Source: Akkermansiaceae bacterium
GTDB lineage: Bacteria > Verrucomicrobiota > Verrucomicrobiia > Verrucomicrobiales > Akkermansiaceae
Length of the DNA: 64,000 bases
Direction: 5' to 3'
NCBI GenBank assembly: GCA_905182475.1
Contig: CAJJBR010000033.1
Location: 24,943-88,942 of the forward strand
Shown here: one piece after another, positions 40,814-58,853 of the stretch
Layout: each line of letters begins with the position of its first letter
How positions within the stretch are numbered: the first letter of the stretch is position 1
The notes under the pieces: generated by a model
Databases searched by the model: none
Told to the model about the DNA's origin: nothing
The model's input: only the letters and a program-made list of their open reading frames with translations
Translations under genes and position numbers: made by a program

Positions 40814-41584
40814 CTATCGTTTGAAACTCGGCCTCACCGGCACGCCGTGTTTCTCGAAATGCTCTTTCGCTTCGCCGACGGTGTGCATGCCGAAGTGGAA
40901 GATGGAGGCGGCGAGGACGGCGTCTGCTTTGCCTTTTTCCAATACCTCAACCATGTGGTCTAGGTTTCCGGCTCCGCCCGAGGCAATGACGGGGATGCCG
41001 ATGGCAGAGGAGATAGCTGCAGTGAGTTCGCAATCGTAGCCTGCCTGGGTGCCGTCGGAGTCCATGGAGGTGAGGAGGATCTCGCCTGCACCCCTGCGCC
41101 AGACTTCTTTTGCCCACTCGACTGCATCGAGGTGGACGGGAGTCCTGCCGCCGTGAGTATAGACACCCCATTTTCCGGGGGCTTCGCGTTTCGCATCGAT
41201 GGCGACGACGATGCACTGGCTGCCGAAGGCCTTCGCACCTTCATCGACGAGACCGGGATTGGTGACGGCGGAGGTGTTGATGCCTACTTTGTCGGCACCG
41301 GCGAGCAGCATGGTGCGCATGTTGTCTACGGAACGGATGCCACCGCCGACGGTGAGAGGGATAAAGCATTTTTCCGCAGTGCGGCGGACGACATCGACCA
41401 TGGTCTCGCGGGCGTCCGAGGAGGCGGTGATGTCGAGGAAGACGAGTTCGTCCGCTTCCTGCTCGTTGTAAGCGATGGCGCATTCGACGGGATCGCCCGC
41501 ATCGATGAGATCGACGAAGTTGACGCCTTTGACCACGCGTCCGTTGGTTACGTCGAGGCAGGGGATGATTCGTTTTGCGAGCAC
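40814..41584 (-). CDS. hisF: Imidazole glycerol phosphate synthase subunit HisF
   Basis: [34 protein letters not shown]...[31 protein letters not shown]...[14 protein letters not shown]. Confidence 0.96.
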
Positions 41585-41591
41585 GGAGTGA

Positions 41592-41627
41592 CTCTAAATT
41601 TCAAAACTCAAAATACAAACTTCAAAG
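41592..41627 (-). repeat. Heptameric A/T-rich array upstream of hisF
   Basis: Minus strand: CTTTGAA GTTTGTA TTTTGAG TTTTGAA ATTTAGAG (7-nt period). Confidence 0.6.
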
Positions 41628-44007: not shown

Positions 44008-44013
44008 GGAAGA

Positions 44014-44043
44014 AACCTTAAATTCTAAACTTTAAACTTCAAG
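44014..44043 (-). repeat. Heptameric A/T-rich array upstream of the HDAC gene
   Basis: Minus strand: TTGAAG TTTAAAG TTTAGAA TTTAAGG TTTC. Confidence 0.5.
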
Positions 44044-44117
44044 CAAGAGTCCGGGGTGATCGGACGATTGAAGGTTTCGGATGACAGGGCGGGGTAAGCC
44101 GTGCAGTTTTCGCTATT

Positions 44118-48073: not shown

Positions 48074-48718
48074 TTAACCGAACACTTTTTTCTTCGAAGG
48101 CGTGATGTGGGGTGGCTTGAGGTAAATGGGTTGGGGGAGTTTTCCTGCCCACAAAGCGCGGGTCTGGGGTGTTGCGCTTTGCCACGCCTGCCACAGGCCG
48201 CTGGCGGAAGGTTTTGCAAGCGGGATTTCCTTTTCCTTGATCAGCTCCATGCAGAAAACCGGGGTCTGGCTTTCTTTTGCCTGGCGAACGGCAGAATCGA
48301 GGCCGATCTCGTCGGTCAGTTCAGGTTCGGTGACGAGCTGCCCTTCGGAGATTTTCGCCACCCAGTAGGAACCTCTCCGCGCGTCGCCGACGGCAATACA
48401 GGGCTCGCCGGTGAGCGCTTCCGGAACAGCGAGAATGGACGGGATAGAGATGGCTTTGCACCCTGCGACAAGTGCCGCACCTTGTCCTGCGGCGATCCCG
48501 ACCCGCGTCCCGCTGTAGCTGCCCGGCCCGCTTCCAACGAAAATCGCCTCGAATGATCGCGATCCGTTCGCTTCGATAATTTCCCCGAGAGGCTCGAAGA
48601 GAGCCGCATTGTGACGGCGGTCGCTGGAAAATGACTTTTGCGCAACGATTTTCCCTTCGTTCGCCAAGGCGATGGAGGCAGTGGGTGTAGAGGTTTCTAT
48701 GATCAGGACAGCGGTCAC
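48074..48718 (-). CDS. tsaB: tRNA threonylcarbamoyladenosine biosynthesis protein TsaB
   Basis: VLIIETSTPTASIALANEGKIV...FVGSGPGSYSGTRVGIAAGQGAALV. Confidence 0.93.
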   Translation of the reverse strand: MTAVLIIETSTPTASIALANEGKIVAQKSFSSDRRHNAALFEPLGEIIEANGSRSFEAIFVGSGPGSYSGTRVGIAAGQGAALVAGCKAISIPSILAVPEALTGEPCIAVGDARRGSYWVAKISEGQLVTEPELTDEIGLDSAVRQAKESQTPVFCMELIKEKEIPLAKPSASGLWQAWQSATPQTRALWAGKLPQPIYLKPPHITPSKKKVFG

Positions 48719-48725
48719 GCCCGGA

Positions 48726-48757
48726 CACTAAATCTCAAATCTCAAATCCCCAATCTC
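48726..48757 (-). repeat. Heptameric array upstream of tsaB
   Basis: Minus strand: GAGATTGGGGATTTGAGATTTGAGATTTAGTG. Confidence 0.6.
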
Positions 48758-58051: not shown

Positions 58052-58831
58052 CTACATTTTGAAATCCTCGCCGAGGTAGTATTTCTTGGCGATGGGATCG
58101 TTGACGAGTTCGTCGGAAGGCCCTTCGAGGATGACTTTGCCATCGTGGATAAGGAAGGCGCGGTCGGTGATGGAAAGGGTCTCACGGACAGAGTGGTCGG
58201 TGATGAGAATGGCGATGCCGTCCTTTTCCCGAAGGTCGCGGACGATGCGCTGGATATCTTCCACTGCGATCGGGTCGATACCTGCGAATGGCTCGTCGAG
58301 CATGAGGACTTTCGGATCCGAGCAGAGGGAACGTGCGATGGCGAGGCGGCGTTTCTCACCGCCGGAAAGGGTGATGGCCTGGGATTTGGAAAGCTTGGTG
58401 ATACCGAAGCGATCCAGTAGGTCGTCGGCGCGTTCCCGTTGGTTCGCGCGTGAGAGGCCGGGGCGTGTCTCGAGGATGGCGAGCAGGTTTTCCCGAACCG
58501 TGAGCTTTCTGAAAATGGATTCCTCCTGAGGGAGGTAGCCGAGGCCGAGCCTAGCACGGCGGTGCATGGGGAGCTTGGAGATGTCCCGCCCAAGAAGCTG
58601 AACAGAGCCGCTTTCCGCCGGGATGAGACCGGCGATCATGTAGAAGGAAGTGGTTTTCCCCGCGCCATTGGGGCCGAGTAATCCGACGATTTCACGCGGC
58701 TTGACGGTGATGCAAACCCCATCAACGACTGCGCGGCCATTGTAGGTTTTACGGAGTCCTTGGGCGGAGAGAACGGCGTTCTTGGTGTTTTTGCAGGTGG
58801 AGCCGGGATCGTGCACTGATTTAAAATTCAA
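58052..58831 (-). CDS. lptB: LPS export ABC transporter ATP-binding protein LptB
   Basis: LLGPNGAGKTTSFYMIAGLI...GLGYLPQEESIFRKLTVRENL...LSGGEKRRLAIARSLCSDPKVLMLDEPFAGIDPIAV; true start may be downstream of the TTG at 58831. Confidence 0.95.
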   Translation of the reverse strand: MNFKSVHDPGSTCKNTKNAVLSAQGLRKTYNGRAVVDGVCITVKPREIVGLLGPNGAGKTTSFYMIAGLIPAESGSVQLLGRDISKLPMHRRARLGLGYLPQEESIFRKLTVRENLLAILETRPGLSRANQRERADDLLDRFGITKLSKSQAITLSGGEKRRLAIARSLCSDPKVLMLDEPFAGIDPIAVEDIQRIVRDLREKDGIAILITDHSVRETLSITDRAFLIHDGKVILEGPSDELVNDPIAKKYYLGEDFKM

Positions 58832-58853
58832 GTTTCAAAATTTAACTCTCAAG
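58819..58853 (-). repeat. Heptameric A/T-rich array at/upstream of the lptB start
   Basis: Minus strand: CTTGAGAG TTAAATT TTGAAAC TTGAATT TTAAATC. Confidence 0.55.

What the first reader, a model, noticed from the sequence alone, without database searches (positions are those of the whole stretch)
41592..41627. Heptameric TTTGANN arrays immediately upstream of start codons (hisF copy)
Upstream of hisF the sense strand reads TTTGAAG TTTGTAT TTTGAGT TTTGAAA TTTAGAG, five in-phase heptads ending ~8 nt from the start codon. Similar 7-nt periodic arrays occur before the HDAC gene (44014-44043), tsaB (48726-48757) and lptB (58819-58853), always on the sense strand. They recall cyanobacterial short tandemly repeated heptamers (STRR) but sit where an RBS or leader should be. 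They could be translation or transcription elements, binding sites, or slippage-prone spacers.
Basis: partly seen in the sequence, partly recalled or inferred. Interest (0 to 1): 0.72.

Follow-up and report, generated by a model that had tools for sequence, protein, structure and literature searches.

The report
Seven-base repeat start-site elements
This uncultured freshwater bacterium places short runs of a seven-base AT-rich repeat right against the beginnings (and some ends) of many housekeeping genes; at several genes the repeat appears to be the promoter itself, and related species use differently worded seven-base repeats in the same places.

Summary
In 1.39 Mb of this Akkermansiaceae MAG, intergenic runs of four or more in-phase TTT occur 73 times at period 7 and at most twice at any other period from 4 to 14. 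They are copies of one directional ~37-bp element, TCTTCC-TTGRRG-(TTTRRRN)3-TTTC. Its TTTC end faces a gene: mostly a start codon (3-15 nt), about a quarter of the time the end of a gene on the other strand, occasionally a tRNA. Neighbouring arms form inverted pairs. Arms recur at the same genes in related genomes (78% protein identity) although their flanks no longer align. The element is confined to a subclade of one genus.

At asnS, polA and hisF the array holds TTG-N16-T(A/G)NNNT-N6-8-start, in register with leaderless promoters of relatives lacking arrays. hisF, the HDAC-like gene and tsaB of the window fit too. At argG, pyrG and guaA it does not: the array touches the ATG. The genome shows almost no Shine-Dalgarno signal. 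Same-genus genomes carry TAACNNN arrays with the same layout, the heptad that MacGregor (PMC4679880) described in Beggiatoaceae. Best reading: a new variant of that kind, doubling as a leaderless core promoter at many genes. Mechanism is inferred.

The parts
41592..41626 (-). hisF heptad array (5 in-phase TTT heptads)
   Evidence: direct reading; motif score 46.8 bits
41627..41632 (-). 5' cap CTCTTC of the hisF array
   Evidence: TCTTCC is conserved in 119 genomic copies
41613..41618 (-). TTGTAT, -35-like hexamer inside the hisF array
   Evidence: TTGTAT-N16-TAGAGT-N6-GTG; same register in relatives; inferred promoter
41591..41596 (-). TAGAGT, -10-like hexamer inside the hisF array
   Evidence: 6 nt before GTG
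40814..41584 (-). hisF coding region, GTG start
   Evidence: NCBIfam TIGR00735, E 8e-109
44013..44049 (-). array before the HDAC-like gene: TCTTGC-TTGAAG-TTTAAAG-TTTAGAA-TTTAAGG-TTT
   Evidence: score 54.0; TTGAAG-N16-TAAGGT-N7-ATG; array at the orthologous start in G004, L001, L003, L036
   Evidence: ORF; no NCBIfam hit
48725..48753 (-). array before tsaB: TTGGGG-N17 (two TTTGAGA heptads)-TAGTGT
   Evidence: below the threshold of the motif scan
48074..48718 (-). tsaB coding region, GTG start
   Evidence: NCBIfam TIGR03725
58817..58858 (-). array before lptB: TCTTCC-TTGAGA-GTTAAAT-TTTGAAA-CTTGAAT-TTTAAATCA
   Evidence: score 50.3; TTGAGA-N16-TGAATT-N8-GTG, a poor -10
58052..58816 (-). lptB coding region (start uncertain)
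   Evidence: NCBIfam TIGR04406; LptB homology begins about 20 aa into the longest ORF

Best explanation
The arrays are copies of a dispersed ~37-bp cis-element, TCTTCC-TTGRRG-(TTTRRRN)3-TTTC, a lineage-specific 'dialect' of the heptad-repeat elements that sit against gene borders in some bacteria (the TAACTGA type). SHOWN by sequence: copy consensus, outward orientation towards the neighbouring gene, 3-15 nt from start codons, inverted pairing, conservation at orthologous genes, absence of Shine-Dalgarno sites. INFERRED: at many start-facing copies, including hisF, the HDAC-like gene and tsaB in the window, the array is the core promoter of a leaderless or nearly leaderless mRNA. TTG is the -35; 16 bp later the third heptad step gives a -10 of the form T(A/G)NNNT; transcription starts at or just before the start codon. 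Because 3x7+1 = 22 bp is also the -35 to -10 start distance for a 16-bp spacer, a heptad ladder keeps both boxes in register when a unit is gained or lost. At other genes (argG, pyrG, guaA) the array abuts the ATG and can only act as an AU-rich, SD-free leader or intercistronic spacer. Heptads and paired arms are homogenised together over time by slippage or template switching, while selection keeps the array in place. The role of gene-end and tRNA-border arms is not explained.
For: Period 7 only. Consensus with cap and fixed length, 119 copies in 1.39 Mb. 150 matches in the whole genome with <=2 mismatches, 28-108 in six same-genus genomes, 0-5 in the other 30. Ortholog conservation: own against G004 12 both / 13 one-sided / 73 neither, G005 9/10/85, with unalignable flanks. 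Promoter register TTGNNN-N16-T[AG]NNNT-N6-8-start: asnS 6/6, polA 4/4, hisF 8/10, shuffled ~0; relatives without arrays keep a looser -35/-10 in the same register (22/24, 22/26, 27/28; shuffled 3-5). Register survives extra heptads (own hisF; asnS of G005, G015, G017). In two divergent gene pairs only 23-25 bp separate the opposing start from the array, so the promoter probably overlaps it. In L002 hisF follows a terminator-like hairpin with only the array between. Target genes are housekeeping (named from their N-termini by eye). SD-like motifs 0-8%, equal to control. 10% of mapped TSS in Akkermansia muciniphila are leaderless (PMC4782308). TAAC arrays with the same layout in the genus.
Against: argG 0/7, pyrG 0/6, guaA 0/6 lack the register; argG in the array genomes keeps a promoter-like TTCCCT-N16-TANNNT upstream of the array, read by eye. 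A class with TTG only 30-31 nt from the start (23 sites) is too short for that promoter. Arrays are less frequent at divergent starts (19/380) than co-directional ones (59/567), p=0.004, unlike a pure promoter. Position 2 of the proposed -10 is often G. Gene-end arms would give antisense promoters. tRNA-Ala keeps its own promoter-like boxes downstream of the array. The TAAC dialect has no TTG. No transcript data.
Confidence: 0.5

Rival explanations
1. Translational leader: the array is the last ~35 nt of the 5' UTR, an unstructured AU-rich site for SD-independent initiation (for example ribosomal protein S1), and its stop codons every 7 nt close all three frames before the start codon. This is close to MacGregor's proposal for TAACTGA.
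For: SD-free genome. Arrays abut the ATG at argG, pyrG, guaA. 117 of 150 arrays close all three frames in 33 nt, 102.5 expected from column shuffling; TGG-making heptads are under-represented, 11 observed, 27.5 expected. The pyrG array lies in the short gap after the upstream gene. TAAC and CTGATCA dialects also carry stops.
Against: Arms occur next to tRNA genes, two of them facing tRNA 3' ends. About a quarter of arms face gene ends, where the RNA carries the reverse complement. Heptads without sense stops occur upstream of starts in relatives (CTTGGCA, TTCGATG). At asnS, polA, hisF the array overlies a promoter.
Confidence: 0.2
2. Mobile or amplified repeat: the arms are terminal inverted repeats of a small MITE/BIME-like element, single arms being remnants.
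For: Neighbouring arms within 250 bp are in '-+' orientation 26 of 32 times, never '+-'. Both arms share heptad type 29:1. Patchy subclade distribution. Many near-identical copies.
Against: Loops between arms show no shared sequence on inspection and vary from 5 to 91 nt; within-pair identity 0.685 against 0.661 between pairs. Presence conserved at orthologous genes with diverged flanks. None of seven Y1-transposase loci has an arm nearby. Strong start-codon spacing.
Confidence: 0.15
3. Binding array for a DNA-binding protein (insulator, nucleoid protein or regulator) that recognises 7-bp direct repeats at transcription-unit borders; two heptad types reflect two specificities.
For: Direct repeats with a fixed cap, both gene ends and tRNA borders used, type coherence within and between paired arms, dialects by lineage.
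Against: Type switches freely between orthologs (17 of 27 agree). Genes share no function. No candidate protein was looked for.
Confidence: 0.1
4. Pure mutational product: 7-nt slippage repeats tolerated in intergenic DNA, phase-variable at most.
For: Heptads homogeneous within an array; long CAATCNN heptad runs exist in the same genus.
Against: Shared cap and consensus at >100 unlinked places, four units as the mode, start adjacency, conservation at orthologs. CAATC runs of the same genus are not start-adjacent.
Confidence: 0.05

Closest known systems
TAACTGA direct heptad repeats of marine Beggiatoaceae, Cyanobacteria and Bacteroidetes (MacGregor 2015, PMC4679880)
   Same: 7-nt direct repeats, a few copies, mostly intergenic and facing a start codon a few nt downstream, a minority facing stop codons, stops in all three frames, canonical RBS rare, no functional theme among the genes, ~170 sets per genome
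   Different: Different heptad (TTTRRRN, A and G types), conserved TCTTCC-TTG cap, frequent inverted pairs (one reported in BOGUAY), tRNA borders, promoter register at leaderless genes, different phylum. TAACTGA itself turned up in sister genomes of this genus
Cyanobacterial short tandemly repeated repetitive heptamers (STRR), from general knowledge
   Same: Intergenic 7-nt tandem repeats
   Different: STRR as remembered are longer, variable-copy and not tied to start codons; not tested here. CAATCNN runs in G349/G060 resemble that picture better
Leaderless sigma70 promoters of Akkermansia and relatives (10% of TSS in A. muciniphila, PMC4782308)
   Same: -35/-10 directly before the start codon; spacing matches at asnS, polA, hisF
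   Different: Spacer and boxes built of reiterated heptads; spacer 16 instead of about 17; TRRRNT instead of TATAAT
BIME/REP-type intergenic repeats (general knowledge)
   Same: Dispersed, intergenic, inverted pairs with variable linker
   Different: No internal GC-rich hairpin, start-codon spacing, no arm next to Y1 transposases

Membership tests
TAACTGA-type start-facing heptad repeats (PMC4679880) | Direct repeats of exactly 7 nt, in excess of other periods | tested here: met
TAACTGA-type start-facing heptad repeats (PMC4679880) | Most sets forward and within several nt upstream of a start codon | tested here: met
   83 start-type against 25 gene-end type at score >=16; modal distance 3-15 nt
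TAACTGA-type start-facing heptad repeats (PMC4679880) | Forward repeats close all three reading frames | tested here: met
   117 of 150 arrays, only somewhat above column shuffling
TAACTGA-type start-facing heptad repeats (PMC4679880) | Ribosome binding sites rare behind repeats | tested here: met
   0 of 68 array genes, but rare in all genes
TAACTGA-type start-facing heptad repeats (PMC4679880) | The heptad is TAACTGA | tested here: not met
   Own genome has one TAAC array match; heptad is TTTRRRN. Hence variant, not member
Leaderless sigma70 promoter | -35/-10 pair with 16-18 bp spacer ending ~6-8 nt before the start codon | tested here: met
   asnS, polA, hisF in 18 of 20 array-clade sequences; not argG, pyrG, guaA
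Leaderless sigma70 promoter | Transcript 5' end at the start codon | not testable with these tools
   no transcript data
Leaderless sigma70 promoter | Conserved A at position 2 of the -10 | tested here: inconclusive
   A about 0.5-0.6, G about 0.35 in array copies
Shine-Dalgarno or translation-only element | Found only before coding genes | tested here: not met
   5 of 28 tRNA genes have an arm at their border
MITE / REP-BIME element | Shared interior or neighbouring cognate transposase | tested here: not met
   (interior judged by eye)
Phase-variable simple sequence repeat | Variable copy number among strains | tested here: inconclusive
   One extra heptad in own hisF; mode of four units in 49 of 83 arrays; no strains of one species compared
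Cyanobacterial STRR heptamers | Specific STRR heptamer words in long variable arrays | not tested
   recalled from memory only

The most novel reading that the evidence does not exclude
Akkermansiaceae genomes without Shine-Dalgarno signals carry a general class of outward-facing heptad-array 'border elements' at starts and ends of transcription units, whose 7-letter word differs between lineages (TTTRRRN, TAACNNN, CTGATCA, TTTAGAA) while cap, copy number, spacing and inverted pairing stay fixed, because a co-evolving recogniser reads the 7-nt step.
Probability: 0.2. Interest if true: 0.8.

Novelty: new variant of a known kind. Interest (0 to 1): 0.6.

Why it matters
How genes are started in bacteria without Shine-Dalgarno sites is open. 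Here is a repeated, conserved, easily recognised element at housekeeping gene starts, with sister species that use another wording or a plain leaderless promoter at the same gene. That makes natural comparisons possible and ties the unexplained TAACTGA repeats of giant sulfur bacteria to a second phylum and a testable function.

Tried and rejected
First iterative PWM drifted because TTTAAA is its own reverse complement; redone with strand competition. RNA hairpin CUUC-NNN-GRRG at the cap: no covariation beyond column composition. Long hairpin between paired arms: only heptad type agrees, hardly more identity. Promoter upstream of all arrays: no -10 signal there. Terminator adjacency: not clearly enriched. 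Selection for stops as the sole cause: relatives have stop-free heptads. REP/RAYT link: none. 16S tail for anti-SD: 16S not found in this assembly. Papers linking heptamers to Verrucomicrobia: none found.

Full report
Where it is. The window is contig C33:24943-88942 of a 3.38-Mb, 144-contig MAG. Its hisF is 94-97% identical to those of MAGs filed as Akkermansiaceae, Verrucomicrobiaceae, Prosthecobacter and similar, and 82-91% to Haloferula, Luteolibacter and Rubritalea. I fetched 1.39 Mb of the genome (a good part of it from contigs chosen because they had matches, so densities are biased upwards, positions are not) and 0.72 Mb of two array-bearing relatives, G004 and G005. Genes were called with a simple dicodon predictor written for the purpose, so some starts are off.

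Observation. The hisF, HDAC-like and tsaB arrays are the only places in the window with three or more in-phase TTT at 7-nt steps, all sense; lptB is a weaker copy. In the 1.39 Mb, period 7 stands alone: 142 intergenic runs of three or more against ~8 expected; 73 of four or more against at most two at other periods.

What the element is. Aligning the copies gives TCTTCC-TTG(A/G)(A/G)G-TTTaaAg-TTTaaAa-TTTaaAg-TTTC; 119 copies above 16 bits in 1.39 Mb, and essentially none in Markov-shuffled sequence. The number of units is narrow (four in 49 of 83 start arrays, counting the TTG unit). Two types exist: the base after TTT is mostly A in all three heptads or G in all three.

Where it sits. The TTTC end faces a gene. 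94 sites face a start, mostly 3-15 nt away; 29 face the end of a gene on the other strand, usually overlapping its stop codon. Neighbouring arms form inverted pairs with TCTTCC inside (26 of 32 '-+', none '+-'), and share type 29:1, whereas arms more than 2 kb apart do not. Among 28 tRNA genes, five have an arm at the border; tRNA-Ala has it in both own and G005, upstream of promoter-like boxes. So the element is not tied to translation.

Conservation. Within the genus, seven genomes including own have 28-150 matches, the rest 0-5; across 287 genomes of the class no other exceeds 3. Presence is shared at orthologous starts far above independence (own/G004 12 both, 9 own only, 4 G004 only, 73 neither), with flanks that do not align, while A/G type is nearly random between orthologs (17 of 27 agree). 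That is the pattern of a selected position with heptads homogenised in cis.

Promoter register. In relatives without arrays asnS reads TTGACA-N17-TATCCA-N5-ATG, polA TGGACT-N17-CAAGCT-N6-ATG, hisF TTGGCG-N17-TTTGCT-N6-GTG: leaderless promoters by inspection. In the array genomes the same place holds TTGNNN-N16-T[AG]NNNT-N6-8-start in 6/6, 4/4 and 8/10 cases, with ~0 in shuffles, also when an extra heptad lies 5' (own hisF, TTGTAT-N16-TAGAGT-CACTCC-GTG). The window's HDAC-like gene (TTGAAG-N16-TAAGGT-N7-ATG) and tsaB (TTGGGG-N17-TAGTGT-N6-GTG) fit. Two divergent pairs leave 23-25 bp between opposing start and array, so a separate promoter upstream is unlikely there.

Where that fails. argG, pyrG and guaA have arrays touching the ATG and no such register; argG has promoter-like boxes upstream of the array in all seven array genomes read (by eye). 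TTG-to-start distances are bimodal, 30-31 and 34-38. Arrays are rarer at divergent starts than between co-directional genes (p=0.004). The element is therefore not simply 'the promoter'.

Dialects. At pyrG and guaA, relatives lacking TTTRRR arrays have period-7 arrays of other words (CTGATCA, CTGAAAA, TAACCAA, TTTAGAA); among 251 genes of these loci 16 have strong period 7 against 0-2 for periods 5, 6, 8 and 9, a set biased to the genes I chose. TAACNNN arrays exceed 100 matches in several same-genus genomes; 22 of them examined face a start 4-17 nt away (12) or a gene end (10), some in inverted pairs, often behind a TCTTYC cap. Some are TAACTGA itself. CAATCNN heptads are long runs not tied to starts, so not every heptad repeat here is of this kind.

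Comparison. MacGregor (PMC4679880) described TAACTGA repeats with the same placement, a minority towards stop codons, three-frame stops and few RBS, and suggested translational regulation. Our arrays meet those features except the word itself, and add the cap, pairing, tRNA borders and promoter register. Akkermansia species are SD-scarce (PMC10783764) and A. muciniphila has 10% leaderless TSS (PMC4782308), which fits the SD-free upstream regions found here.

Verdict. Real, conserved, unusual; a new variant of a known but unexplained kind. Promoter function at a subset of genes is the best-supported mechanism; gene-end arms and ATG-touching arrays remain open.

Noticed in passing
own genome, all fetched stretches: Almost no Shine-Dalgarno signal before any class of gene, including tightly spaced operon genes (4-8%, equal to control).
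   Followed up: partly
L344-L363, e.g. L358, L362, L363: TAACTGA heptad repeats, known from Beggiatoaceae, Cyanobacteria and Bacteroidetes, occur in this Verrucomicrobiota genus, up to about 7 copies, with the same start-facing placement.
   Followed up: partly
L250-L276 upstream of asnS: Textbook leaderless promoter TTGACA-N17-TATCCA-N5-ATG conserved across the genus.
   Followed up: no
own genome C40:26797, C56:1073, L110:13449, C45:42083: Dispersed GC-rich palindromes (GTCGGGACATTCCTGTCCCGAC, GCGGACTTTAGTCCGC) in intergenic regions, sometimes just before an array.
   Followed up: no
G349, G060 (L364-L390): Long CAATCNN heptad tandem repeats, up to 17 copies, some at contig ends, not start-adjacent.
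   Followed up: partly
own genome C56, two copies about 1.4 kb apart: Identical array-bearing segment TTTTCAGTTTGGTGTTTAGCGTTTAAAACTTAGAG in what looks like a duplicated or degenerate region.
   Followed up: no
G027 polA (L227), G002/G012 polA (L242, L240): Stop-free heptads (TTCGATG; CTTGGCA) fill the region before polA, with TTGGAC/TTGGAA about 35 nt before the ATG.
   Followed up: no
G000 assembly: No 16S rRNA gene found in the MAG.
   Followed up: no
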